Shown here: piece by piece, positions 2,203 to 63,605 of the stretch
Numbering within the stretch: position 1 is the first letter of the stretch
How the letters are laid out: each line of letters opens with the position of its first letter
Assembly (NCBI GenBank): GCA_013407085.1
Contig: JACCGJ010010175.1
Coordinates: 97,365-161,364 of the forward strand
Reading direction: 5' to 3'
Length of the DNA: 64,000 nucleotides
From: Atriophallophorus winterbourni
Taxonomy: Eukaryota > Platyhelminthes > Trematoda > Plagiorchiida > Microphallidae
Notes under the pieces: generated by a model
Seen by the model: the letters and a program-made list of their open reading frames with translations, nothing else
What the model was told of the DNA's origin: nothing
Database searches by the model: none
Made by a program: the position numbers and the translations under genes

Positions 2203-35154
<32,952 letters not shown>

Positions 35155-45830: not shown

Positions 45831-45934
45831 TATGTACAAGCTTCCGTCAAATACGCTGATGTGCGGTCACATTTTTGTTGCTCTGACACTTTTGACCGTT
45901 TCTTCGCCAAATCTACTCGGATTTTAACCATTTC

Positions 45935-48596
45935 AAAACTCTTTGTTATATTTTGGCCAGAGTTATAGGAAATTTATACATTTTGATTTGGTCCATCGAT
46001 TAACAGCAAAGTTACCGTTTCAATGTAAATATCTCACTTTGCTCACGCGTACAAATAATAAATCAAAAGGTTCACATTCTATAAAGAATGACGCTGCCAG
46101 ATTTCAAACGCCACTCCTGGTTATGGGAGACTTCAACCTTCCAAAATTGATGAAGAAAAACGCTCTTTCAACGAATTCGCTCGACGATGCGTTTCAAGAA
46201 CTGATCTTCGATATTCCTTTTTATAACCACGTATTTGATAACACTAGATATAGAGATGGTAACATGCCATCCGTCCTGGATCTAATACTAACGAGTGAGA
46301 AACACGCCGTCGAAAATCTCTGATACGAAACTCCATTGGGTTCTAGCGACCACCTGGTCCTCTTATTCGATTATGTTTGTCAAGCTGAGAGAATGAATGA
46401 CATCAACAAAACAAAACTACAACTGGATATTGGAAGTCTTCACAATGCTCTTCGAACGATTTCTGACTGGAAACCAGACACCACGGACGTGCATCGTTCT
46501 TGGGCAAACTTCAAAGAGAAGCTGTGTGATGAAATAAACCTACATTCCAGATTTGTGCCAAAGACAGCGAAAAAACGATTTACCTTCACGTTGAGAAGCC
46601 GCACAAGGAAGTGGATTAAGATACGCAACGATGCATGGAGAAACTATGTCCAGAATCCGATGCCAGATAATTGGGAAACATATCGTCTGTTGAGGAACAA
46701 GGTCACCTTTCATATCACCGAGGATAAGCAATCTCATCAGGCAAGACTACTGACCATGATGGAGCGGAACCCCAAAGTCCTGTACCAGATCGTTAACACT
46801 ACATCAAAAATTAAGCCAGGAATCTCAGCACTACGCACACCAAATGGTCTATCTACGACTGCGTTCGAGGCTGCCGAAGTTCTTGCAGGTTACTACTGCA
46901 AAGTTTTTAGCCCCAACGAATCAGTGCATCTTACGCCGCATTCGATCGGCTTTTCCAATGAAATACTAAATGAAATCTCAATAAACAATGAGTGTGTCAT
47001 GCTCAGACTTCTTCGTTTGAATACCGCAAAGTCACCAGGAGCAGATGGAATCACTCCTTTTATCCTCAAACGATGCGCATCATCATTGTGTGGTCCACTC
47101 AGCACATTATTCCAAATTTCGCTCGAAAATAGTATCGTTCCCGCGGAATGGAAATCTGGCATCATCACACCAATCTACAAGGGCGGGAGTCGATCTGACG
47201 CTGCGAACTATAGACCAGTTACGTTGTTGCCAGTATTTTCTAAAGTGCTAGAGAGTTTAGTAGCGGAAAAGATCACCCATCACCTCGAAAACAATAGACT
47301 GCTTGCGACTGAACAGCACGGTTTAAGGAAACATCACTCATGTCTATCTAACCTCTTGCTCACCTTAAACGACTGGACTGAGTGTGTGGACAATGGTTAC
47401 TCCATCCACGCATGCTTTTTAGACATGTCAAAGGCTTTCGACCGCGTCAATCATAGTATTTTAATCCAGAAACTTGAATTGCACGGGATAACAGGAAACT
47501 ATTTACACTACAGGAGTGCCCAAGTCAGAGTGGACGGCGCCTTATCAAAATCATGTAAAATTACGAGCGGAGTGCCCCAGGGTTCGGTCCTCGGACCGAT
47601 TTTGTTTTTGATCTACGCAAACGACATTCCCGAGCGTGTTAAATACAAGATTATGTTATTTGCAGACGATATAAAGCTTTGGAGAAGCATACGTACAAAT
47701 GATGACTGTGAAACTTTGCAGAAGGATCTAAACACATTGCACGATTGGTTTTTGAGAAACAAACTACCATTCAACTTCCAAAAGTGCAAAGCGTTAAACA
47801 TTGGAAAGACTGTTAATTACAACTACACTCTTGGGTCCCACCAACTCGTCTGGACAACTGAAGAGAAGGATTTGGGTGTTTGGACCAGTTCAAGTCTGAA
47901 GACTTCACTGCAGTGCAATGCGGCTTACAAAAAGGCGTCACAAGTATTGGCGTTATTGAGACGAATTTTCGGCAGATTCTCCAATCAGTCGGTGCCCCGT
48001 ATCATGAACACCTATCTGAGACCAGCGATGGAGTACGCTGTTCAGGCTTGGTCACCCTGGATTCAGAAAGACATCAATCTTCTGCAACGTATTTACCACC
48101 GAACCACAAAGCTTGTACCCGGACTAGCTGCTAAACCATATTAAGAACGTTTGAGGAGTCTCAATCTTTTCGACTTTCGCTGTCGTCGACTAAGAGGTGA
48201 CCTCATACTGATGTACAATATTATGCACGTCCCTAACCATCCCTTGTCCAAACGTGTCACACGCTCGCCACCCCGTGCCAGTCGGAAACATGAACTTACA
48301 GTGCTTATTCCCACTTCAAGACTGAACTGTCGAAGATATTCGTATGCTGTACGTGTAAGTTTTACATGGAACACCCTCCCCTCCACTGTTACACACTCAG
48401 CCAACCTGGATATTTTTAAAGCTAATTTGGACAAATACTTGAGAGACAACCCAAACTTTGATACGATTTACACTACATGAGTTTTCCTGTTTTTCTTTTT
48501 TATTGTATATACCTCATAACTCCATCCTATGGTTGTTGTTAAGCTAAATGCTTTTTAGACCATTACAACTTTGAATCACTTTGAATCACTTTGAAC
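45935..48596 (+). mobile_element. CR1-like LINE, almost intact endonuclease/RT frame
   Basis: 5'-truncated inside the endonuclease. One frame runs from 45943 to 48480 with only two in-frame stops: TGA at 46321 and TAA at 48142. Endonuclease: LLVMGDFNLPKLM near 46115, SVLDLILTSEKH, LGSSDHLVLLFDY near 46340. RT: SPGADGITPFILKR near 47035, GVPQGSVLGPILFLIYANDI near 47575, FADDIKLWRSI near 47660, KDLGVWTSSSLK near 47870, CRRYSYAVRVSFTWNTLP near 48320. The 3' tail has two ACTTTGAATC repeats at 48568-48596. High preservation suggests a young insertion. Confidence 0.92.
46336..48144 (+). pseudogene. LINE ORF2 protein, reverse transcriptase part (602 codons)
   Basis: The longest open frame in the window. 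It begins just after the TGA at 46321 that splits the endonuclease, and ends at a TAA (48142-48144) where relatives read on with ERLRSLNLF in the same frame. It carries the complete RT with GVPQGS and FADD boxes. The protein would copy LINE RNA at a nicked target. Both flanking stops are compatible with single-base changes. Confidence 0.9.
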
Positions 48597-49412
48597 AAGA
48601 ATTCTTGTGCACTAAGCGTAATACGTACGAATGCTAGCGAGTCCAACGAAAGCCTGTTTGATAGGAAACACAAACACGATCTCGATAAATGGTCTCAACT
48701 TTGTCAACAAATGCAAATTCAGCATGTTATTCCTGGCAAATTGATTCGTCTAACTCGCCACTCCACCTCAGCTCATATTGATAAACCTCGCTTACTAAGG
48801 GTTACACTGAAGTGCGAGGCTGATATCGAGAACATACTGCTAAATTCGTACCGACTAAAGACGGATCCCAATTCAAAGTGCCGGATATATCCCGATGTAC
48901 CATGGTGGGAAAGAAAGGGTACTTTAAACAATAAGGAAAAACGGTCTTGCGAAGTATAGTTCTACTTGGGGCACCAGAAAATACCTCCTAAGCATCGGTT
49001 CAGGAAGCCGCAGAGCACGACTTCAAGCAGTGGCGTTACATTGCGTTTTCGCTTGATATTTCTAATGTTGTGGTCAATGACACAATTTTGGCTGCCTTTT
49101 TCGCCAAAATATAAAGTAGATGGTCCGAAACCCCTGAGGATTACGTTTTTGACTAACGACATGGCTGAGATTGTAAAGTCCGACTGGAAAAAAGCGAAAA
49201 GAGCTTTACCGAAGGACGCTAGACTTAGTCCACCCAAACCAAGTACCATGATCGAAACGCATCCACGTCTGGGGACAGCAGATGGTAGCGTTCCCACCGA
49301 AATGGAAGAAATCGATGCATCAAAAAACGTCGTAGGTCCGGCTCAAACCGAGTCGGACCGAATACGACATACAGGGACCCAAATGTTGATTCAAACTGTC
49401 AGCGCGCAATAG
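48597..49412 (+). pseudogene. CR1-like LINE ORF1 remnant
   Basis: Starts directly after the 3' tail of the previous element. Frame 48591-48959 holds ESLFDRKHKHDLDKW, KPRLLRVTLKCEADIENILL and RIYPDVPWWERK; a frame change near 48950 is implied because another frame reads RSIVLLGAPENTS there. 48966-49412 holds GPKPLRITFLTND and WKKAKRALPKDARLSPPKP. The N-terminus is missing. ORF1 of this family is expected to bind RNA. Confidence 0.75.
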
Positions 49413-52360
49413 GTAGCTCACCAGTTTCAATCTCCCGGTCACTTACTGTTAAGCCAGATCAGGTATCACACTGTCTGACGCCTTATCGTATACTACACGA
49501 TTCATCGCTACATCAAGCTGGCGGAACTCATTGATATCTGTGTAGAAAAGTCCCCTGATCTTATTGCTGTGACGGAAACTTGGTATCAGTCGAGTATGAC
49601 GGACAGTGAACTTTTTATCCCTAATATGACACTTATTCGTCGAGACCGTGATGGCCCTGGAGGTGGTGTTGCATTGTATTATCACAAGCGACTCAAGGTA
49701 AATATCATTGCAGATACTGAAATTTCACTCACCGACACACTTTGGTGCTCACTTGACCTGGAATCTGGTGACAGCTGTACAATTGGGGTTATATATCGCT
49801 CACCAACTTCGACAGCAGAACATAACGATATGTTAGTTGAAAGACTTCATCGCATCATCGCTCGACTACACGCTCAACTTCTGATTATTGGAGATTTCAA
49901 CCTCCCGCAGCTATACTCGAGAAATCAGCACTCAATGAACTCACTGGAACACAAATTTCGCGAAGTATTCGATCTGGTACCCATGTACAACCACGTCTCC
50001 AACCACACACGAATGAGAGAAACAGGCCGGCCCTCTGTTCTAGACCTTGTTTTGACTTCCAACGAATCAGCCATTGAATCAATACACTACGAAGCTCAAT
50101 TGGGGCTGAGTGACCATGTGATGCTTGTGTTCGATTATGTCTGCAGTGCAACGAGACTCAGTGACGAATCGAAAGTGATCCGTAGAGTCGATTTTTGGAG
50201 ACTCAAGAAAGCACCCTCTGAGCTAAGCGATGTTCAACTTGATTCTAGTGACTCAAATACACATTACAATACTTTGATCAACTACCTTCAGATGCAAATC
50301 CAGTCTAACTCTCGATTTATTCATAGGAAAGATGTCCACACCTTGCGTTTCTCTGTTCGCAGCAGAACCAGAAAATGGATTTCACTAAAACGGCGAGCCT
50401 GGGTCACTCATTGCGATGATGCCACCCCTACATCCTGGTTACAATTTTGCGGAATACGTAACAGAGTCACCACGCTCATTCGACAGGACAAACAACAGTA
50501 CCAACAATTTATGGTGGAACGAATGGAAGAAAATCCGAAATTATTGTACAAAATTGTGAATGAAATTACCAAAGTTAAACCAGGGGATTTCCCGATCATG
50601 ACAGAAGAAGGAATGACCGTCACAGTCCAAGAGACGACAGATGTATTTGCATGCTTTTACTCTCAAGTCTTTTTCCCAAAACAGCAATTATCGCATCATG
50701 AATTATCAAACACAGTGAAACCACTAAGTGAACCGGTAATAGATCAATTTGTAGTGGAGCGACACTTACGACGATTAAACACGAAGAAATCCCCCGGGGA
50801 GGACAACATTACCCCAGTAATTCTTCATGTGTGTAATAGAGAGCTTTCACATAGCTTAGCTGCGGTTTTCATCCAGAGTCTTCGCGAAGGTTGCGTACCT
50901 TTAGCATGGAAAGCGGGTGTGATAACACCAATTTACAAGGGTAGCTGTCGTTCTGACGCAGAAAATTACAGACCTGTAACGCTGCTACCCTGTATTTCAA
51001 AGATCATGGAGCACATCATTAGTGAATGTATTGTGGGTCACCTTGAAGCAAGAGGTCTTTTGTCAGCAACACAACACGGGTTTCGCCGGACCAAATCTTG
51101 TCTGTCCAATATACTGATCACACTAAACGACAGGACTATGTCGCTTCACCAAGGCTACACGGTTCACGCTTGTTATATTGATATATCAAAGGCTTTTGAC
51201 AAGGACAATCACAGCCTGTTTCTGCAAAAGCTAGCGCATTATGGAAAAAGGGGTAACCTACTATCGTGGTTAATAGATTATCTGACCGATCGGCATGTGC
51301 GAGTTCGCATTGACGGTGTGCTATCGAAAAGTATCGATGCCACGAGCGGGGTATTTCAAGGATCAGTACTCAGGCCTATCATCGGCTTCCTGTTATACAT
51401 CAATTATATTACTGAAATAGTGCGGTGTAAGCTAGTTCTTTTTGCTGACGACATTAAAATATGGAAGCAAATCCGATCTACTGAAGATTGTTTGATGCTA
51501 TAACAGGACTTGGATGCTCTGTATCACTGGTCCCTATTAAATCAAATGCCGTTCAACTTACGTAAAATATAATATGTTACAGTTTAGCCGTAATTACGAC
51601 CATACACATCATCTAGGCCACGAAAACCTAACTTGGACCACCGCTGAAAAGGATCTCGGGATTTGGATCACTACTAACCTGAAACCGAATATGCATTGTC
51701 AAAAAGTGTTTAATAGGGTATGCGGTATATTAGGAATCCTGAGGAGAATTTTCGGGCGGTTCACTCCCAAAACACTTCCCCGCATTATAAATAATTACAT
51801 TCATCGAACGATGGAGCATTTGATCCCAGCCTGGGCACCGTGGCTGCGCAAAGACATCGACCTCTTGGATAGAATTTACCACCGAGCTACAAAGCTAGTT
51901 GATGGGATGCAGCACGTCTCATATCAAGAGCGAATGGCCATACTAGGTTTGCCTGATTTTACAAAGAGACGAATGAGGAGCGACGTTATTCTAGCTTACA
52001 AAATACTGCGAATCAAAAACCACCCGCTCCGAGATCTAATAAAAATAATTTCCCCTCGGAATACACGTAGTCACTCAAGTTGCCTCGCAATACCGCACTC
52101 AAGACTTGACTCTCGGCGCCATTTCTTCTCTGTGCGTATCTGCTTTCTATGGAATGCACTACCGCAACAACAGTTGATGTTTTTAAAGCAAAACTAGATG
52201 CATATATCAAACAACACCCCATAATCGGCCCTGTGTATTGAATCAACATGAACCCAGACAAACATGTGTGTTTTTGATTACATTTTCTTTTTGCAATAGT
52301 TGTCATCCAATGGTACATGTAAAGCAATTTCTTTTTTCACCATAAAATCTTGATTCTTAA
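49413..52360 (+). mobile_element. CR1-like LINE ORF2 and 3' end, same element as ORF1 remnant
   Basis: An open frame from 49479 to 51503 encodes a full APE-type endonuclease (LIAVTETWYQSSM near 49560, IGVIYRSPTS near 49785, IIGDFNLPQL near 49885, LGLSDHVMLVFDY near 50105) and RT (SPGEDNITPVILH near 50795, LFADDIKIWKQI near 51440). The substrate box is damaged: GVFQGSVLRPI for GVPQGSVLGPI. After a TAA at 51501 and a frameshift near 51565, the frame 51574-52197 gives KDLGIWITTNLKP and the C-terminus; another frameshift near 52175 precedes the natural end at 52239. The tail ends ATAAAATCTTGATTCTT. Confidence 0.88.
49479..51503 (+). pseudogene. LINE ORF2 (endonuclease plus RT), disrupted
   Basis: About 675 codons without a stop. 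It contains both catalytic domains in order; endonuclease residues Glu (TETW), Asp/Asn (GDFN) and SDH are all kept, as is FADD. It ends early at a TAA replacing a Gln codon (LQQDL in relatives). Confidence 0.85.
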
Positions 52361-53272: not shown

Positions 53273-54308
53273 TCGACAAATCAATTGTATTTAGACATGA
53301 ATTCTACGTCGTTCAGTTTTCGGTTTAGATGGTGACGCTTGGAACCGGTCAGATCAATAACACGTGACTTCATCCACGCCCACGTACTTTGGCCACAGAT
53401 ATTGAGTGACCTTGTATCATGTGATTCATTCTTATTGGTTGATGAACTCTCATGCATTGTCTGCGCAGTCAATGTTAGATCGAAATGACGTTTCGCAGCA
53501 GTCCATCTGATGTTGGTTCTATCGTATTCTATTGAGACGGGAAACTAATGGATGAATCCGATAGAGGTGAGATTGGATAGAATAAACCCTTTCGATAGCT
53601 GATGCTTTGCAGCTCACCACTTAAGCAATAGGCTCTCAGCTACAGCGCTGTTTAAACAGTTAATATTTAAATAATTTGTCACTAACCAACTGTGGCGAGC
53701 AGAGCTTCGTGGTGGAAAACTTTTCAATTGCAACTTTACTCGAAGTGTCCAAACATTCTACAAGCAATCTGTACGGTTTAAGGCTACTCGGTAATTTGCT
53801 ACCATGGTCGCCGGGTTCGCTTTCCCTATCCCTTCACGAGATATCAGAGTATGTACGGCTAAATGAGTATATATCCGTAGAAGGCATGTAATAAATTTTC
53901 CAGTTCATTTTATTTAAGCAACCGTGATTTACCGTGCTATGTGAGGAAACTATTTTCTGCGAAACGCGGAAGTGGTTATTTGTTAAATTCATTTTCAGGG
54001 TATTGCCTTGCTCGAGCTACGTCTCAAGGTAGTGCTGCTTCCGAGTTTCGAATGGTGAAAGATCGAGTGTATTTATCCATAGCAAACTCAAATTATGGGA
54101 TCCACCATTAGATTTCCGGGGCATTTGTCTACGGTTTCATTGCTTTTAGTGAGACGTGTGCTAGCGTAAGTCGAAAAGTTCTGATAAGCTGCAGTAGCGT
54201 AGAATGTTGGTGGTTGAGATAAATTTTTGGGATCATTGGTTTTAATCCTTTTCTGTTGCTTTACTGGGTTTCCCAACGCCATCATTTCTACCTTGCGAAT
54301 TATAGCTA
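53273..54308. other. No gene recognised
   Basis: Open frames of 60-90 codons on both strands without recognisable domains. No LINE tail or ribozyme core seen. Confidence 0.5.
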
Positions 54309-54412
54309 TCAAGCGCATGCGGATCCTGATCTTACTGTCCCTGCCTGATGAGTGCAAACAGCCCGAAACCGGTCGTGGGGTGTGTGTGATGGAAATGCAT
54401 GCAAATGAATAT
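54309..54412 (+). ncRNA. Dispersed hammerhead ribozyme repeat, family A, intact core
   Basis: Short copy from CAAGCGCATGCGGATCC to GCATGCAAATGAA. CTGATGA at 54345-54351, helix II GTGC/GCCC (one mismatch) with AAACA loop, GAAA at 54365-54368, perfect ACCGGT helix III, cleavage predicted after C54374. Helix I pairs TGTCCCTGC with GTGGGG using two wobbles. Confidence 0.85.
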
Positions 54413-55213
54413 TATAGCAATGGCCATTTCGCACCAGCACAAGCCACGACGTGTGTTCAAAATTAGTCCAACGGTGCACGGCGTGCCGGTCATCGCTGCT
54501 CCGGTTGCCCGTATGCATGTCTCGGTGCGGTTGTGTGTGTGTGCTGACGAAGGTCTTATCGATCGGTGGTGAGGTGAATCGGGTACACAGGCATGCAGGC
54601 GTCAGAACCCAACACAACTAGGCCACGATAGACTCTGACCGAATGAGTTTCGCATTAGCGGTTACGCGTTGTGTATGAGCTCACGCGATATATATTGACG
54701 GGCTATATTGAATGGGTTTTAAATCGAGGATATATCTGACTATCGTTGCCAGCGCTACGGGAGAGATTGTTCCTCCCGAATCGGACTGTTTAGTCATTCA
54801 AAAAGCTGTATAACATGAACATTCATGCGATTGTGATGTACATCCATGGTCGACATCGACCGAAGGAGGCCAACAACAACAACAACTCTGTTGTGTAACT
54901 AAGTCCGCATTGAGAAATTCTTGTATTATCTTGCTGTGAAAGAATAATGGTATTATTTCGTCACATGTTTGACGAGACAAGCACAAACTTGTAAGCACTA
55001 TCTATCCGTGGATTCTAGGCTATGAACGATCAAGTAATAAGGAATAAGAAAATAAATTTAAACGCTTTATTCAAAAAATTCGAAATTTCAGGGGTAAATT
55101 AATAATACAATAAGTAATTACAGAATATAGCAACAGGAAATAATTCAAAATAATACGAATTGTTTGACGACACGTTGTTCACTGTTCCGTGACGTTTCCA
55201 AAGGTGCTGACTA
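54413..55213. other. No gene recognised; holds a 31-bp dispersed repeat
   Basis: GC content is higher than in the introns around 54460-54620. TAGTCCAACGGTGCACGG at 54463 resembles the start of the SINE-like insert at 38.6 kb (GGTCCAACGGTGGACGG), but no B box follows. 54831-54861 is the second copy of the repeat at 1867-1897. Confidence 0.45.
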
Positions 55214-55293
55214 AATAAGGTTATACTAGAACGCCACTGTTGCACAGGGTTCGCACAACGAACCACGATGTTCAAACACAGAATCACATAGTG
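55214..55293 (-). repeat. Inverted part-unit at the left edge of the ribozyme array
   Basis: About 80 bp matching, in reverse orientation, the unit segment seen at 55361-55437 (ATCACTATGTGATTCTG to TATAACCTT). It switches at about 55293 straight into the forward unit (TTTCGGGGAATG), so the array begins with a foldback. Confidence 0.85.
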
Positions 55294-55484
55294 ATTTCGG
55301 GGAATGTGAGCAACACATCACTTTGGTCATCCATAAACGCCTTGAGTGCTTGACTACGAATCACTATGTGATTCTGTGTTTGAACATCGTGGTTCGCTGT
55401 ACGAACCCTGTGCAACAGTTGTATTCAGGTATAACCTTGTTTACCATTTATCCACTGTTTCAAGGCTCACTGAACCTAGTCTTA

Positions 55485-55535
55485 CTGTCTCCACCCGATG
55501 ACGGCAAACAGCTAGAAACCGGTAGTAGACTGTAA
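55485..55535 (+). ncRNA. Array hammerhead 1, core mutated
   Basis: The core reads CCGATGA at 55495-55501, one change from CTGATGA at an invariant uridine, so activity should be lost. GAAACCGGTA is intact. Confidence 0.8.
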
Positions 55536-55725
55536 TTTCGGGGAATGCGAGCAACACATCAATTTCGTCATCCATAAGCGCCTTGAGTGCTTGACTACGA
55601 ATCACTATGTGATTCTGTGTTTGAGCATCGTGGTTCGCTGTACGAACCCTGTGCAACAGTTGTATTCAGGTATAACCTTGTTTACCATTTATCCACTGTT
55701 TCAAGGCTCACTGAACCTAATCTTA

Positions 55726-55776
55726 CTGTCTCCACCTGATGACGGCAAGCACCCAGAAACCGGTAGCGGAGTGTAA
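55726..55776 (+). ncRNA. Array hammerhead 2
   Basis: CTGATGA at 55736-55742, GAAACCGGTA ending at 55765. Helix II is weakened (GGC facing CCC with an AAGCA loop), the other parts are intact. Confidence 0.8.
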
Positions 55777-55978
55777 TTTCGGGGAATGTGAGCAACACAT
55801 CAATTTCGTCATCCATAAGCGTCTTGAGTGCTTGACTACGAATCACTATGTGATTCTGTGTTTGAACATCGGCGTTCGTTGTACGAGCCCTATGCAACAG
55901 TAGTATTCAAGTATAACCTTGTTTACCATTTATCCACTGTTTCGAGTCTCACTGAACCTAATCTTACTGTCTCCACCT

Positions 55979-56748
55979 CAATTCAATTCAATTCAATTCA
56001 ATTTTAATGGTCTAAAAAGCATATAGCTTTACAAAAACCACAGAAAAAATGGAAATTTACAAATAACATATCTCAATAAAAACGGGATTTGTTTGCTTAC
56101 TGAACACTTCGGGAATCAGGTAAAAATCCAAATGATATAAACTGTTTTCACTCAGTGGAATGGCACATGTATGTCCATGGAGTCGAGATGATTTGATGTG
56201 TGAGTTCAAAGTTATTAGGTTGTGGAATACATAGTCTCAATGTTCGGATGGGTCGACAGGAATTTGTCTAAGCTGGATTTGAATATGTCCAAGTTGGGTG
56301 CATGTGCAACATTCGAGGGTAGGGAGTTCCAAGTGAAACATACACGTACAGAATAAAAATATCTTCGACAGTTCAGTCGCGAGTCGGGAATTAGTACTGT
56401 GTACTCATGACTCCGGCTGGTTCTTGGTGGTTGTCGTGTGAATAGTGTATTAAGGGGATGGCTGGGGGTATGCAATATGTTAAACATTAGGATCAGATCA
56501 CCTCTAAGACGTCGGTAAGGAGAGTCGAAGAGGTTGAGGTTTGCAATACGATCTTCGTATTGTTTGTGCTTTAAGCCGCACACGAGCTTCGTGGTCCGAT
56601 GATAGATTCGCTGCAAGAGATTGATGTCTTTCTTTAACCAGGGTACCAAGCCTGAACCGCATACTCCATGGTGGGCCTCAAGTAGGTATTAATTATTCGA
56701 TGAACAGTCGGCTTCGTGAAACTCCCAAACACGCGTTTCAGCAGAAGC
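55979..56748 (-). mobile_element. CR1-like LINE inserted in the core of an array ribozyme
   Basis: 770-bp, 5'-truncated, minus-strand insertion. The 3' tail is (AATTC)n at 55980-56002 followed by the GCTTTTTAGACCATTA tail in its own direction. The coding part has WLKKDINLLQRIYHRTTKLV, NCRRYFYSVRVCFTWNSLP and NLDIFKSSLDKFL with few lesions. Left flank ends CCACCT (55978) and right flank resumes ATGACGG (56749), so it splits CTGATGA. Flanking unit lengths show no target-site duplication and a loss of one base. Confidence 0.92.
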
Positions 56749-56976
56749 ATGACGGCAAACAGCCAGAAACCGGTAGTGGTGTGTAATTTCAAGGAATATG
56801 AGCAACACATCACTTCGGTCATCCATAAGCGTCTTGAGTGCTTGACTGCGAATCACTATGTGATTCTGTGTTTGAACATCGTGGTTCGTTGTACGAACCC
56901 TGTGCAACAGTGGCATTCAAGAATAACCTTGTTTACCATTTATCCACTGTTTCAAGGCTCACTGAACCTAATCTTA

Positions 56977-57027
56977 CTGTCTCCACCTGATGACGGCAAG
57001 CAGCCAGAAACCGGTAGCGGAGTGTAA
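56977..57027 (+). ncRNA. Array hammerhead 4, intact core
   Basis: CTGATGA at 56987-56993, helix II GGC/GCC, GAAACCGGTA with cleavage after A57016. Helix I pairs CTCCAC with GCGGAG with one mismatch. Confidence 0.88.
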
Positions 57028-57217
57028 TTTCGGGGAATGTGAGCAACACATCAATTTCGTCATCCATAAGCGCCTTGAGTGCTTGACTACGAATCACTAT
57101 GTGATTCTGTGTTTGAACATCGCGGTTCGTTGTACGAACCCTGTGCAACAGTTGTATTCAGGTATAACCTTGTTTACCATTTATCCACTGTTTCAAGGCT
57201 CACTGAACCTAATCTTA

Positions 57218-57268
57218 CTGTCTCCACCTGATGACGGCAAGCAGCCAGAAACCGGTAGCGGAGTGTAA
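57218..57268 (+). ncRNA. Array hammerhead 5, intact core
   Basis: Same sequence as hammerhead 4, shifted by 241 bp. CTGATGA at 57228-57234, cleavage after A57257. Confidence 0.88.
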
Positions 57269-57458
57269 TTTCGGGGAATGTGAGCAACACATCAATTTCG
57301 TCATCCATAAGCGCCTTGAGTGCTTGACTACGAATCACTATGTGATTCTGTGTTTGAACATCGGCGTTCGTTGTACGAGCCCTATGCAACAGTAGTATTC
57401 AAGTATAACCTTGTTTACCATTTATTCACTGTTTCAAGGCTCACTGAACCTAATCTTA

Positions 57459-57509
57459 CTGTTTCCACCTGATGACGGCAAACAGTCAGAAACCGGTATT
57501 GGTGTGTAA
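57459..57509 (+). ncRNA. Array hammerhead 6, intact core
   Basis: CTGATGA at 57469-57475, GAAACCGGTA with cleavage after A57498. Helix II has GTC in place of GCC, and helix I starts with T rather than G after the cut. Last complete ribozyme before the array ends near 57541. Confidence 0.82.
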
Positions 57510-57541
57510 TTTCAAGGAATGTGAGCAACACATCACTTTGG

Positions 57542-59384
57542 TGACTAAATATTCGATATGTTTCTCTATAGTAAAAATGTGCACACTAATGATTGATGCG
57601 AAACTCATAATAACCTAGTTCAACGCATTTTTGGGACCGAACGATTCGCTGTGCAGCGTGCACCACAAATTGTTATATGGAGCCACTGCCATTTCTATTT
57701 TCATTCCTCATATCTGTCTAGACCAGGGCAACCTGACAGTATCGTGGCCAACGTGCAATTTATGACACTGCGGTACTTTGCCTGGATTAGTTTTTTGATT
57801 TCATACCTACATCTGGAAGCGCGGTTGATTGCGACAGAGCAGGAGAAATATGTTGAGATCCGCTACATTAAGAACCCTCTTTAGAGAACGCAGCAAATAA
57901 TAACAGCCGTTGGTTTTCTACGTTTTCAGCTAGCTGCCTTTTAGGTTGTTGAGTTTAAACTGTTTTTGAATAACCCAGCGAGTTGCAAAGTCAAACTCAC
58001 TCCCGTTTACTTAGAAGCTGACATTGACAGCTTTTGATGTACAATCGAGATGCTGCTAAATAAATAAATAAATAAATTAGACACACAACAGGGCCAATTG
58101 TAGAACACTGGTTTCGACAAGCGAATTGATTGTCATCGTTTTCATATTATAGAGGTGTGACGTGCACTAGCGATGAGTGCTAGTCACGAGTTCTCGAATG
58201 ATATGTAGAACACCACCATCAGGCGCAACCACAAAGCAGAAAGCATCGAAATGACCGAGGACGGACATCGCCAACCCGTATCAATTCGGGTTTCGAAAGG
58301 ATTGTTGCATGAGAACAATTCGAGCGGCAACATCCTCGGAAGCGCGAGGAGATGGAAAACTCCGGGCACTATCGAACGTCAGGGTCGGTCAAACAAGCCC
58401 AGTGTGGCTAGGGATTGAAATGAACCGGTTAGTACGAAATCGAATGTAAAATCAGATGGAAATGATGAAGGAGGAGGGACATGGTGAGGTCTGTGTCTTG
58501 GTTACGTGATTCGCATGTATAAGGTGGATGTTGTATGCTTCATTCTTGTCATCGGTGTAATAAACGCGGCTGTCCAATCGACTTTCCCTGGTGTTGTGGG
58601 ATTCATGGGTGAACACGACAGTTTATCTTCAGTGATGAATCGGGGCCCAATCGACCCGGGGATGACGTAGTCAATGACGGATTGAGTATCCTGAGGCTTG
58701 TGCAGGTCGTTAGAACATGATATGAGATTTACCTTCGATTGGTCTGACATAATGTTGCATCCCCGCTACAATTAGGTGGCTTTTGTGCAGGAGAAAGAAT
58801 TTATGTTCTGCTGACCGGATAAAATCTTGCTCTTTCCAACATTGGCAGTGGTATCATTCCAGAGACAGTCGTTTTGAATGTTGGCTGAATAATCGAATTC
58901 ACCCTCAGGCTTTCAATGCCATCGGCTTATAGCTTGGAAACCAACTGTTTTGCTTACCTTATAGAAGTTTTGCTCATTTGAGGTTAGAAATTGGCAGTTG
59001 ATGCACATCTATTTCACTACTGAATTTCACTTTGAGTTCACATTCATTTCTGGCCACAATATTGTGTGAACCGCTTGTAATGCACCACAATCAAAGATAA
59101 GGACTTCTGCGTCGAAGCAATCGCCAAGTGTAGAGCATCCATACTGCTCGTATCGCAACACATCCTGCAGATTTGATGACGCGTAAGCTATTTATAAATA
59201 TGATATAAATTTACGATTCCTATTGATAAGCGGTTTCAGCGTCAAACCTTGTTTGAAACTTTGCTACTGTGTCAAGAATCTGACATTGTCGTCTCCATCC
59301 AATAAAACCAATGAGCGTAAAACCGATGGTGGAATATGCGGTATATATGTATTTTTCTAACTAGAAAAGATTGTTTACATTACT
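57542..59384. other. No gene recognised; (AAAT)n at 58057-58078
   Basis: A short (AAAT)n run at 58057-58078 could be the tail of an old retroelement, but I find no coding match upstream. A minus-strand frame at 58502-58750 (SVIDYVIPGSIGPRF, EDKLSCSPM) looks faintly like the end of a LINE endonuclease but lacks a clear SDH motif, so I leave it unassigned. Confidence 0.4.
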
Positions 59385-60168: not shown

Positions 60169-60567
60169 CTCCTGGCCTGCACGAGTGGCTTTCACAAGCC
60201 CGGCGGAAATGCTCTTACTGACAGGAGAAGGGGCGAAGGCGGGTGACTGGCGCCTTAAAACCAGTTTGCTCCGGGCAGATGGAGCTCGTCAGCTACTGGC
60301 AATCCATCTAGGGGAAGGAAAACCCTGACTCCAACCCCCCACTGCCTTGTGGGTTACCCGATTGCGGGAAAGGCTTCGGGAGAAAACCCCGAGGAAAAAT
60401 CCGGAGAGAAGCCCCGTAGGTAGATAACTGGCGCACAGCGCGTTTATCGGCCAGCTCCCTGCTGCCTTGTAGGTTGCACTTGGCTGTGCAAAGGCTAGAG
60501 AGGTGTACTCGAACAAACACTAAGTGGTGATGGGGACATCGCTTGTACACTATCCCCAAGAAACTTC

Positions 60568-61679
60568 ATGACGATGTCTCAAAGTATATCTCAGCTCTCT
60601 GCTACGGCGTTCCCGAGACGCGACGCGCCCTTGGCTCTCCCAGCGGCTAGGGTGAAAAGTAAGCTAGCTGGGGCCATAAATATCCGTAAGGTCTTTTATC
60701 TGGGATGTTGGAACGTACGGACACTGCGTGACGTTGGTAGTCAAACAATCACGATGCGCTCGTTATTGGACTACCAAGTAGTTGTTGCTTGTCTTTCCGA
60801 GGTCCGCCTTCCCGGACACGGATCCAAATCGATCAAGGTCCCCGGAGTCGATCGTAATTATTTCCTTTTTATAATGGGCCCGAGGATGGATCTGGTCAGC
60901 ATGGAGTAGCGATAGCGCTCAGCGACCATGCTAAACAAGCACTCATGTCATGGATGCCTGTATCCCCGAGAATTGCGGTGGTCCGGCTGAGGGGTCACCC
61001 TTTGAACATAACAGTCGTTTCGGTGTATGCCCCAACCCTATCAGCCGACCAAACTACAAAAGACGATTTTTATAACCAACTTCAATTCGTAGTCGATAGA
61101 GTTGCTGGAAACGACGTACTGGTTGTGGCTGTTGACTGGAACGCTCGTACAGGATCAGCAGATTCCGCAACAAACCGAATCCTGGGAAAATTTGGCCTAG
61201 GGCAGCGCTGCGCGAATGGCGATCGACTGATCGAGTTTGCGGCCTACAATCACCTATGCGTCTGTAACACTAAATTCCAGCACTCTAAAAAACACTTGGT
61301 CACATGGTACTCGAACGATGGTGGAACGGCAAACCAGATCGATTATGTTCTAATTCGCGCACGTTGGATGTCTTCGGTCCTCGACTGTAGGTCCTATCGT
61401 GGAGCCGAAACAGGGAACGCAGCAGGCACCGATCACACACTTGTTCGCGCAAAGCTCCGACTTCGCCTGCTAAACCGCCAAAGGAAAACTCCTATAAAGC
61501 GCTTAAACTTGGAAGCCTTAGGAAACCCGGCCCAACGTGAGAAGCTCATTGACGATATCGCTGAGTGGTTGGATGGGAGTGATGCATCAGTCGAACAACA
61601 GTGGTCCAGACTGAAGACCGCTACTCAGACTGCAGCACTAAAAACCCTAGGCACGGCCTCTCGTCGCCGACGAGATTGA
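60568..61679 (+). pseudogene. RTE endonuclease domain, frameshifted
   Basis: GCWNVRTLRDVGSQTITM near 60705, ACLSEVRLPGHGSKSIKVPG near 60785 in the first frame; after the frameshift near 60868, HGVAIALSD, VSVYAPTLSADQTT near 61015, VVAVDWNARTGSAD near 61125 (relatives have GDWNAR), LVTWYSNDGGTANQIDYVL near 61295, and GTDHTLVRAKL near 61425. Gly-to-Val in the GDWNAR motif could weaken activity. A TGA at 61677 follows RRRRD. Confidence 0.88.
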
Positions 61680-63605
61680 ATTTCTCAGAACACCATCGAG
61701 CTCTCTGCCCGGGCAAGAGACGCCCGAATGCATGGTGCATCTGATTATCGCCTCCTTAGGAGAGCTGCTACACGATCAGCCCGCAAGGATCGTCAGCTAT
61801 ACTGGGCGGAAACCGCGTCCGAAATGGAAACCCCAGCAAGTATAGGAGACTTTGGACGACTGTTTCGCCTGATTCGCAGAGCATCTGGAAGCTGTCGTTT
61901 TTGTACGAATCTTCGAGATTCGTCAGGACAGATGATATTTGACCTTCATCAAAAGATAGATAGGTGGGTTGAGCACTTCAGTCAGCTACTGAGCCGCCCG
62001 TCATCTATCAATGCAGTATTCACTTCCCCGATAAATAGTTGTGAATACCCGGTCAACTGCGAGGCACCATCAGAATACAAGATATCAAGTGTTTTACGAC
62101 GAATGCAGAATGGTAAATTGCCAGGTGAGGACGGAATTTCCGTTGAACTTATTAAAGCCTGTGCCGACGTATTATTATCTCCGCTACATCGGCTGTTTTG
62201 TTCGATCTGGGAGACGGAAGTTTTCCCATCAGACTGGGGGATGTCTATCATTCTACCACTGCCGAAACGTGGCGATAAATCTGTGTGCTCCAATTACCGC
62301 GGAATAAGTCTAATCGACACCGCTGCTAAAGTGTTTGCAACGCTCCTGCTTAATCGGTTCTCCGCCGAAAGAAATCTGCGCACCTGAGTTAACCAAGGTG
62401 GATTTCGCCCTGGGATGGGTTGCGTAGATCAAATATTTACTTTACGCAGGATCCTCGAGCACCGTGCACGGTATCAACAGCAAACGATAGCTTGCTTTAT
62501 TGAGTTCCGCGCCGCCTTCGACTCCGTAGACCGTGGTTGTTTATGGGACATCATGCTATCGGATGGGGTTCCATTAAAGCTCGTCAACCTAATCAGAGCC
62601 TATTACAGCTCTAAAAGGGCATGGGTTCGTGTCTACGGTGAAGAATCGCGTGAATTTAACTTGCACACAGGAGTCAGGCAAGGTTGCCCGCTATCGCCGG
62701 TTATGTTTAACTATGTCGTAGACTGGATAATGAACCAGGCGTTAACAGACTATCAAGGGGTGCAAATTTCAACGGATCTATGGATTTCCGACCTTGACTG
62801 CGCTGACGATATAGTCGTTCTGGGCGACAATACCGAAATGCTGCAAAGCGTTTTAGACCGCATTAGTGCCACTGCCGCGAAAGTCGGTCTTGAGATAAAC
62901 GCGGCCTAGACCAAGGCATTTTTTTATTCCGACACACCAGGCATCCAGCCACTTCGCGTCCAGGGTTGTCCGATCGAATACGTTCCAGTCTTTAAATACC
63001 TCGGCTCAAGTATATTGCCCAATGGTCAGGCGAAAGATGAAGTGAAGTTAAGGGTCGATCGTGCTCGTAATGCGTTTTGGCAGTTGAAAGGCACCCTTTG
63101 GCGCAAGCCCGGGATCAGCCTAAAAACTAAGACGCGTGTTTATCAAGCAGCGATCCGCCCTGTACTGCTTTATGGATGCGAGACATGGCCTTTAAGGTCA
63201 CAGGATGTACGCACATTAGAAGTGTTCGACCATTGGTGCCTTAGTGTAATCTTGGGCATTCGATATACTGACCGAGTATCTAACGCAGCCGTACGAGAGC
63301 GTTGCAGCGGACTATCTCCACTTTCCGCTCACATACAACGGCGAAGGCTGCAATGGTTTGGCCACGTCCTCCGAAAGACAGACACAGCACTTCCAAAACT
63401 CGTCCTCGACCCCAAACCCGTTCGCACCTGGCGTCGACGGCAAGGTGGTCAAGTGAAAACCTGGCTGTCAACTGTGAAAGAGGATGTAGACACCCTGGGT
63501 CTGCGTACCGTCTACGGAGTTCGCAGGTGGGAACGAGACTGGATCACGATCTCCGATCGACGTGCGTGGGCTGGTGCGATCCGGGACATCAATGAAGCCG
63601 GCTAA
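61680..63605 (+). pseudogene. RTE reverse transcriptase, three-part frame with two stops
   Basis: Same frame throughout. RMQNGKLPGEDGISVELIKA near 62100, LPKRGDKSVCSNYRGISL near 62260, then TGA at 62385 where relatives have Arg; NQGGFRPGMGCVDQIFTLR near 62392; FIEFRAAFDSVDR near 62495; GVRQGCPLSPVMFNYVVDWI near 62660; catalytic box DCADDIVVLGD near 62795; TAG at 62907 where Lys is usual; FKYLGS near 62995; then a C-terminal HVLR...RRRLQWFGHVLR block near 63345. The catalytic box is CADD rather than YADD/FADD. Confidence 0.88.

What the first reader, a model, noticed from the sequence alone, without database searches (positions are those of the whole stretch)
55294..57541. Retrozyme-like tandem array: exact 241-bp units each with a type I hammerhead
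Seen: six predicted cleavage positions, spaced exactly 241 bp wherever uninterrupted, each preceded by CTGATGA, helix II and GAAACCGGTA. Known: type I hammerheads with short helix III mark metazoan retrozymes, Sm-alpha repeats and Penelope-like elements. Inferred: transcription through the array would be cut into 241-nt monomers that could be ligated into circles. There is no protein in the unit, so it must depend on another retroelement's enzymes, several of which lie close by.
Basis: partly seen in the sequence, partly recalled or inferred. Interest (0 to 1): 0.88.

Follow-up and report, generated by a model that had tools for sequence, protein, structure and literature searches.

The report
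Hammerhead retrozyme copied by Penelope enzyme
A chromosome of what is likely a parasitic fluke carries a short run of 241-base repeats with hammerhead-ribozyme motifs, flanked by a 10-base duplication, and relatives elsewhere in the genome often end about 42 bases past the hammerhead, where 8 of 16 sampled Penelope-type jumping-gene copies also end, so a Penelope enzyme likely copies them, a helper question that published work leaves open.

Summary
The array is real: four of four uninterrupted intervals are exactly 241 bp and there are six GAAACCGGTA sites, but only four of six keep CTGATGA, one is broken by a LINE fragment, and none reaches Rfam's hammerhead threshold. All six have an unpaired C·A at the base of helix II, a form with 2161 exact copies in the genome. 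The array is likely one insertion: a 10-bp duplication encloses it and its 5' end is an inverted partial unit. In this 537-Mb, likely trematode, assembly, right ends of 32 independent A-type loci cluster at unit positions 34-44 (10) and 156-166 (7); inverted 5' ends use the same places (12 of 14). In 40 further motifs, 25 lose similarity at +38-54. Penelope-like copies end +43 (8 of 16) or about +79 (8) after their own hammerhead, without significant similarity to units A or B. Fixed internal starts on both strands and inverted 5' ends are the published Penelope signature. Verdict: a metazoan retrozyme, likely mobilised by Penelope-like enzymes rather than nearby LINEs; cutting into 241-nt circles is untested and doubtful here. 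A sister subfamily (233 bp, canonical helix II) forms longer arrays.

The parts
55208..55217 (.). Left target-site duplication TGACTAAATA
   Evidence: 10/10 match to 57542-57551 at the two borders mapped by similarity; random 35-bp pairs reach >=10 bp in 0.12%
55218..55290 (-). Inverted 5' segment, reverse complement of unit positions about 154-82 (head-to-head)
   Evidence: 85-nt arms 55212-55296, 88-94% complementary to the units; unit coordinates
55291..55524 (+). Unit 1 (5' truncated); motif CCGATGA...GAAACCGGTA
   Evidence: blastn to unit 5, 95.7%
55525..55765 (+). Unit 2, 241 bp; hammerhead motif 55736-55765 (helix II further damaged: CACC)
55766..55978 (+). Unit 3, first part, interrupted inside CTGATGA
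55979..56748 (-). 5'-truncated LINE fragment inserted into unit 3; 3' tail (TCAAT)n at 55978-56003; frame 56688-56215 resembles the C-terminus of LINE reverse transcriptases
56749..56775 (+). Unit 3, last 27 nt (ATGACGGC...GAAACCGGTA)
56776..57016 (+). Unit 4, 241 bp; motif 56987-57016 with intact CTGATGA and GAAA
57017..57257 (+). Unit 5, 241 bp (reference unit A; position 1 = first base after predicted cleavage); motif 57228-57257
57258..57498 (+). Unit 6, 241 bp; motif 57469-57498
57499..57541 (+). Partial unit 7: ends 43 nt after the last predicted cleavage site (start site S1)
57542..57551 (.). Right target-site duplication TGACTAAATA
54307..54410 (+). Dispersed B-type copy; TSD ATTATAGC (54299-54306 / 54411-54418); ends +36
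29788..29986 (+). B-type copy with inverted 5' segment; TSD AATAATATATTCT (29775-29787 / 29987-29999); ends about +45
18833..19127 (-). B-type copy, read on the minus strand with most of the 233-bp unit in its inverted 5' arm; 7-bp TSD TCTACAT (weak)
26733..26816 (-). Short copy with A-type helix II; TSD AAACAATCT; ends +42; right border chosen together with the duplication
17110..17306 (-). B-type copy with inverted 5' segment; 7-bp TSD GATTATT (weak); ends about +43
9090..9190 (-). Short B-type copy; TSD TATAAACAAG; ends +40
6495..6552 (-). 5'-truncated B-type copy; imperfect TSD CTCARTATAG (9/10); ends about +46
30923..31148 (+). B-type copy of about one full lap, borders not settled (no convincing TSD)

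Best explanation
The array is likely a single insertion of a non-coding hammerhead retrozyme, reverse-transcribed in trans by a Penelope-like element enzyme that would start copying inside the RNA about 42-43 nt past the hammerhead cleavage position and would prime on both target strands. Shown by sequence: 241-bp tandem units, a 10-bp duplication around the whole array, an inverted partial unit at its 5' end, right ends of A-type relatives clustered at unit positions 34-44 and 156-166, inverted outer ends at the same two places, and Penelope-like copies in the same genome that end at about +43 or +79 after their own hammerhead motif. Inferred steps: transcription of a multimer; binding of the RNA by the Penelope-like reverse transcriptase/GIY-YIG enzyme; start at S1 (about +42) or S2 (about +157); copying for part of, one or several units; a second start from the other target strand giving the head-to-head inverted end; repair leaving the duplication. 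Self-cleavage and circle formation are not needed for this and are doubtful for the array subfamily (C·A at helix II pair 10.1-11.1); they may operate in the sister B subfamily, which has canonical helix II and longer arrays.
For: Single insertion: TSD at both mapped borders; a haplotig carries the same (L014). Fixed 3' end: of 37 fetched A loci, 4 haplotig repeats and 1 running off its contig were dropped; of the other 32, 10 right ends fall in an 11-nt window at 34-44, reached by 1 of 2000 uniform simulations, 11 after border extension; 7 at 156-166. Second sample, 40 of the first 56 listed A-type motifs (16 passed over, mostly second motifs of a contig): similarity ends at +38-54 in 25, +150-166 in 6, +122-123 in 2, >=+250 (tandem) in 3, unresolved 4. 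Both strands: 14 of 32 have inverted 5' segments; outer ends 9 at 33-53, 3 at 152-167, 2 elsewhere; 7 in an 11-nt window, 0 of 2000 simulations. Sister family B: of 15 fetched loci 7 run on as arrays; of 8 bounded ones 7 end at B40-49, the eighth at B147 with inverted outer end at B42. Penelope-like: L060 ends at +43 and 38 of 40 best hits stop there, as they must where the query's own copy ends; of 16 copies read, 8 end near +43 and 8 near +79. Published match: a Penelope-like protein cleaves and extends both strands and starts internally at two adjacent sites, hammerhead mutants inserting normally (PMC11167929, parts 1-2 of 4 read); [quoted passage not shown]
Against: No enzyme, RNA or cleavage data. 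In the anole system the RNA template needed the first 172 nt of the element's ORF, inferred to hold the protein-binding motif (PMC11167929); retrozyme RNA lacks such an ORF and would need its own equivalent. Agreement of +43 in both element types alone has a chance of roughly 2-8% (my estimate: several A sites, 241 positions). The second sites differ (+157 against +79). Right ends also pile up at 128-142 (5 of 32) and 71-92 (6 of 32; L037 looks like an internal deletion), and 2 lie at 112-113. TSD >=8 bp was found automatically in 9 of 32 loci (null 5%), >=8 bp in 12 of 40 (null 17%) and >=10 bp in 6 of 40 (null 3.7%) of the second sample, so many borders lack a clear duplication. Penelope identity of the genome's elements rests on GIY-YIG, hammerhead, tail and recalled motifs; the reverse-transcriptase piece on the strand of the endonuclease in L068 has no Pfam match, and the piece in L069 (sub-threshold RVT_1; flatworm relatives) lies on the other strand from its endonuclease. 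No significant similarity between a Penelope 3' region and units A or B; the 26775 copy is marginal (7 of 200 shuffles).
Confidence: 0.63

Rival explanations
1. Classical retrozyme cycle: the hammerheads cut the transcript into 241-nt monomers, a ligase closes them, and a reverse transcriptase runs round the circle several times to give the array.
For: Tandem units of constant length and published circles from metazoan retrozymes of about 170-400 nt (PMC7229834: abstract, Results part 1 of 3 and Discussion read). The sister subfamily with G-C at 10.1-11.1 has 4126 exact motifs and, among the 100 listed, 26 lie one unit (230-234 bp) from another (14 of them on contig C129), against 4 of 100 listed for the A form (counted by eye; the B pattern is looser than the A pattern).
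Against: In the array helix II pair 10.1-11.1 is C·A in all six motifs, and in 43 of 44 A-type motifs of the set; Rfam does not accept it; units of one insertion differ by up to 10% with U2/U5 and U3/U6 closest, unlike laps round one circle; circular folds are not unusually stable (z -0.5 to -1.6).
Confidence: 0.22
2. LINE-driven SINE-like spread: enzymes of the LINEs in the neighbourhood move the repeat, with ordinary twin priming giving the inverted ends.
For: Such LINEs are abundant and close; target duplications and 5' inversions also occur with LINEs (recalled).
Against: The printed right junctions of the 32 loci do not end in a microsatellite tail such as (TCAAT)n at 55978-56003, by inspection; inverted outer ends are site-specific rather than scattered.
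Confidence: 0.11
3. Ordinary satellite DNA that grew by unequal crossing-over and merely contains a dead hammerhead.
For: Heterogeneous units with a roughly three-unit periodicity could come from unequal exchange after insertion.
Against: Many dispersed copies with recurring ends and different target duplications.
Confidence: 0.04

Closest known systems
Metazoan non-LTR retrozymes (PMC7229834, PMC7761336)
   Same: Short tandem repeats with a type I-like hammerhead, no recognised protein, G+C below 50%, target duplication longer than 4 bp
   Different: Array subfamily has a fixed C·A at helix II pair 10.1-11.1; most of the 40 sampled motifs lie in short non-tandem copies ending near +42; recurring start sites tie it to Penelope-like elements, whereas PMC7761336 (passages) says the repeats show no conserved motif pointing to the helper
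Penelope-like elements (PMC3846280, PMC11167929)
   Same: Head-to-head inverted 5' end, two recurring 3' ends, target duplications around 8-14 bp where found, hammerhead upstream of the start site, tandem or partial tandem copies
   Different: No protein; second start site at about +157 rather than +79; no significant similarity of units A and B to this genome's Penelope 3' region
Schistosome Sm-alpha / W-element hammerhead repeats (PMC8490949 and PMC6155905, passages)
   Same: Trematode repetitive DNA with type I hammerhead, considered mobile
   Different: Not compared at sequence level here (no eukaryote collection was on hand)

Membership tests
Metazoan non-LTR retrozyme | Tandem repeats of 150-450 bp carrying a type I hammerhead | tested here: met
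   241-bp array and 233-bp sister unit with the motif; the array's motif is non-canonical in helix II
Metazoan non-LTR retrozyme | No protein-coding capacity | tested here: met
   Four stop-to-stop frames of 86-107 aa over the units scanned, no Pfam match above cut-off. LTR, PBS and PPT were not searched for
Metazoan non-LTR retrozyme | G+C below 50% and TSD longer than 4 bp | tested here: met
   Unit 45.2%, array 44.3%; TSD 10 bp
Metazoan non-LTR retrozyme | Efficient self-cleavage of the transcript | not testable with these tools
   Sequence speaks against the A form and leaves the B form open
Metazoan non-LTR retrozyme | Accumulates as circular RNA | not testable with these tools
   No RNA data on hand
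Rfam hammerhead families (RF00163, RF02275) | Score at or above the gathering threshold | tested here: not met
   0 hits in the window; 9.5 of 52 bits for unit 5; two sister copies 18.4 of 52 and 18.6 of 34 bits
Penelope-like element | Encodes reverse transcriptase with GIY-YIG endonuclease | tested here: not met
   None recognised in the four unit frames scanned; one endonuclease segment gave no convincing window match
Works like a Penelope insertion | Recurring internal start sites used on both target strands, inverted 5' end | tested here: met
   against PMC11167929 and PMC3846280; the enzyme step itself is untested
LINE-dependent SINE | 3' end shared with a LINE tail | tested here: not met
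   Right junctions of 32 loci show no such tail, by inspection; full LINE 3' ends were not compared

The most novel reading that the evidence does not exclude
Retrozymes are parasites of Penelope-like elements that are copied from a fixed start about 43 nt past the hammerhead, on both target strands, whether or not they can cut themselves; in its boldest form the hammerhead fold is the ruler or docking signal for the Penelope enzyme, kept as a structure rather than as a cutter, which would explain a subfamily with 2161 exact motifs whose ribozyme has lost its closing pair in helix II. Against the boldest form: in the anole system RNA lacking most of the hammerhead still inserted (PMC11167929).
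Probability: 0.2. Interest if true: 0.87.

Novelty: new variant of a known kind. Interest (0 to 1): 0.65.

Why it matters
Which autonomous element mobilises animal retrozymes is described as open (PMC7761336, passages; PMC7229834 names Penelope-like elements as a strong candidate on co-occurrence). Here the insertions carry a readable signature, start sites at a recurring distance from the hammerhead, on both strands, that matches published Penelope biochemistry and, at +43, the genome's own Penelope-like copies. It turns the helper question into a direct test and bears on the unknown role of the minimal hammerheads of Penelope-like elements.

Tried and rejected
Hammerhead in a LINE 5' UTR: the motif at 26775(-) lies just upstream of a LINE ORF1 piece; set aside because AAACAATCT flanks it on both sides and it ends +42. 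The right border there was chosen after seeing the match.

Unit as part of a Penelope pLTR: unit-like stretches lie beside GIY-YIG hits in L052/L068 and L054/L069. The L068 stretch after the endonuclease has its own long flanking duplication (seen), so I took it as a separate insertion; the other L068 stretch and L054/L069 were not resolved.

Unusual stability of a 241-nt circle: z -0.5 to -1.6, ordinary. Dimer folding through the palindrome ACCGGU: predicted for some motifs, but the predicted folds are not specifically hammerhead folds. Pol III boxes: one weak A-like match in unit A and one weak B-like match in unit B. Viral and bacterial collections: 0 and 5 matches to a loose motif, taken as chance without following them. 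A second Penelope family (L067) was not mapped because the genome machine did not answer. A literature search for the 10.1-11.1 pair found nothing; that canonical hammerheads want G-C there is recalled, as are the position numbering and the LINE clade names. The multiple alignment printed nothing and was replaced.

Limits: genome DNA searches score only the 40 best candidates, so the first loci are biased to close relatives of the query. The second sample is 40 of the first 56 listed of 2161 motifs; the 16 passed over include a tandem pair on C74, so its tandem share is low by choice. Similarity-defined ends overshoot by some bases, and uniform simulations ignore that alignments tend to break at variable positions. 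The motif table counts only motifs that fit a set pattern (55).

I also corrected the B copies that share a 5' start (five short ones, not six).

Full report
WHAT IS THERE. The window belongs to a 537-Mb assembly. The closest named relative of one of its LINE proteins is from the lung fluke Paragonimus westermani (64% identity), a digenean trematode, so the host is likely a trematode. Between 55218 and 57541 lies a tandem array of a 241-bp unit on the + strand. The four uninterrupted intervals are exactly 241 bp. Unit 3 is split by a 5'-truncated LINE fragment with a (TCAAT)n tail. Full units are 90.0-97.5% identical, U3/U6 and U2/U5 being the closest pairs.

THE RIBOZYME. GAAACCGGTA is present six times; CTGATGA four times of six. 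Helix II reads C-GGC ... GCC-A: up to three pairs above an unpaired C·A at 10.1-11.1, in all six motifs. Among 55 motifs that fit a set pattern, from the window and 32 loci (five haplotig or repeat loci left out), 43 of 44 with C at 10.1 have A at 11.1, while 6 of 9 with G at 10.1 have C; 10.2-11.2 is mostly G-C in the A form and mostly U-A in the B form, a double change that keeps the pair. Exact A-form motifs number 2161 in the genome and exact G-C forms, by a looser pattern, 4126; the patterns read backwards give 0. So this is no private decay of one array but a form that spread. Helix III is the palindrome ACCGGU, too short to close well in one molecule but able to pair between two; weak helix III with dimeric cleavage is described for many animal type I hammerheads (PMC7761336, passages). 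Rfam does not accept the array's motifs at its thresholds; two sister copies give sub-threshold hammerhead matches. That canonical hammerheads want G-C at 10.1-11.1 is recalled. Activity is therefore predicted to be weak, not shown to be absent.

ONE INSERTION. TGACTAAATA stands at both borders (55208-55217, 57542-57551). Matches of 10 bp or more occur in 0.12% of random pairs of the same size. The left end is an inverted partial unit (85-nt arms) that meets the direct array head to head near the palindrome AATCACTATGTGATT. In the window seven of eight better-preserved dispersed copies show flanking duplications of 7-13 bp (one imperfect) and end at about +36 to +46; the copy at 31124 shows none. 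Some of these borders were settled by eye together with the duplication, and the two 7-bp ones are weak (random pairs reach 7 bp in 6%). Four more decayed matches (45540, 10968, 59212, 21358) were not settled.

RECURRING ENDS ACROSS THE GENOME. Of 37 fetched A loci I dropped four haplotig repeats and one that runs off its contig. Right ends of the other 32: 10 at 34-44, 6 at 71-92, 2 at 112-113, 5 at 128-142, 7 at 156-166, 2 at 240-241; border extension moves one of the last to 34. Fourteen have an inverted 5' segment whose outer end is at 33-53 in 9, 152-167 in 3 and elsewhere in 2. Uniform placement gave 10 of 32 in an 11-nt window once in 2000 simulations, and 7 of 14 never. In a second sample taken from the motif list, 25 of 40 end at +38-54, 6 at +150-166, 2 at +122-123, 3 continue in tandem, 4 were not resolved. 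Of 15 B loci, 7 run out of the fetched stretch as arrays; of the 8 bounded ones 7 end at B40-49 and one at B147. Target duplications of 8 bp or more were found automatically in 9 of 32 A loci (null 5%), in 5 of 8 bounded B copies (8-14 bp), and in 12 of 40 of the second sample (null 17%; 10 bp or more in 6, null 3.7%).

THE GENOME'S PENELOPE-LIKE ELEMENTS. A GIY-YIG search lists 17 places; one open frame is confirmed by Pfam. In L060/L061 (the same sequence over 601 bases), L067 and L069 a minimal hammerhead-like motif (CTGATGATGTCATCTAGCTTGATGACGAAACGTC and variants) lies downstream of the endonuclease on the same strand. Sixteen copies of the L060 type end at about +43 (8) or about +79 (8, two of which share a flank) after its cleavage position; four of the sixteen were read by eye because the script's motif did not fit. 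A Penelope 3' region shows no significant similarity to units A or B, and a marginal one to the 26775 copy (7 of 200 shuffles). The shared property is a hammerhead core about 43 nt before the end.

HOW IT LIKELY WORKS. PMC11167929 (parts 1-2 of 4 read) shows for an anole Penelope-like protein that both target strands are cut and extended, that reverse transcription starts inside the RNA at two adjacent sites with no apparent difference between strands, and that hammerhead mutants insert normally. [quoted passage not shown] The retrozyme insertions show the same anatomy. I therefore infer that a Penelope-like enzyme copies retrozyme RNA in trans. Against this, the anole enzyme needed 172 nt of the element's own ORF in the RNA, and an RNA starting 20 nt into the ORF, which removes most of the hammerhead, still inserted; so retrozymes would need their own recognition sequence, and the idea that the hammerhead itself is the docking signal is weakened though not excluded for this lineage. 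Since units within one insertion differ, the template was probably a multimer, read through rather than cut into monomers; unequal exchange after insertion is not excluded.

A AND B DIFFER. Among the 100 motifs listed for each form, 26 of the canonical form but only 4 of the A form lie one unit from another (by eye; 14 of the 26 are in one array on contig C129; the two patterns are not equally strict). This would fit a cycle with circles in B and a mostly cleavage-free life in A, but mutated neighbouring motifs could produce the same contrast.

NOVELTY. Retrozymes, Penelope hammerheads and trematode hammerhead repeats are known. In the listings and passages of the searches I saw no paper that ties retrozyme insertion ends to Penelope start sites; I did not read all listed papers, most subscription papers are not in that library, and Cervera and de la Pena 2014 and Lunse et al. 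2017 were seen only as references (the first was not held). New as far as seen: recurring dual start sites, their use on both strands, the shared +43 distance, and a large subfamily with an unpaired helix II base.

Noticed in passing
L072, L073, L080, L081, L083 (B copies): Five short B copies share not only the 3' end but also a 5' start at B165-171 (L071, longer, starts at B166 too), as if a discrete RNA of about 108 nt were copied; the query favours such copies, and the cause is unknown.
   Followed up: partly
G000:C129:5684-12264 (-): Long B-type array with canonical hammerheads, mostly 230-234 bp apart, over about 6.6 kb: a good substrate for RNA work.
   Followed up: no
unit positions 71-92 in L041, L043, L045, L046, L049: Several A copies stop in or beside the unit's own palindrome (73-89), possibly a third start site or a hairpin effect.
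   Followed up: no
L103, L106, L129, L130 and window 26733-26816 (-): Copies with the A-type helix II but a different sequence after the cleavage site, still ending at about +42; probably one or more further subfamilies.
   Followed up: no
45928-48480 and 48596-52238 (+): Two LINEs, the first ending in an (ACTTTGAATC)n tail at 48568-48595 directly followed by the second, which begins inside its ORF1.
   Followed up: partly
60499-63605 (+): A further LINE of a different type with endonuclease and reverse transcriptase pieces.
   Followed up: no
L070, also L064-L066 and L053: Head-to-head inverted repeat (about 2 kb arms in L070, 95% identical) carrying GIY-YIG frames on both arms, in L070 next to LTR-type polymerase-like frames (label recalled).
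   Followed up: no
32419-32878: Long (TA)n followed by a 305-bp (ATGG)n microsatellite.
   Followed up: no
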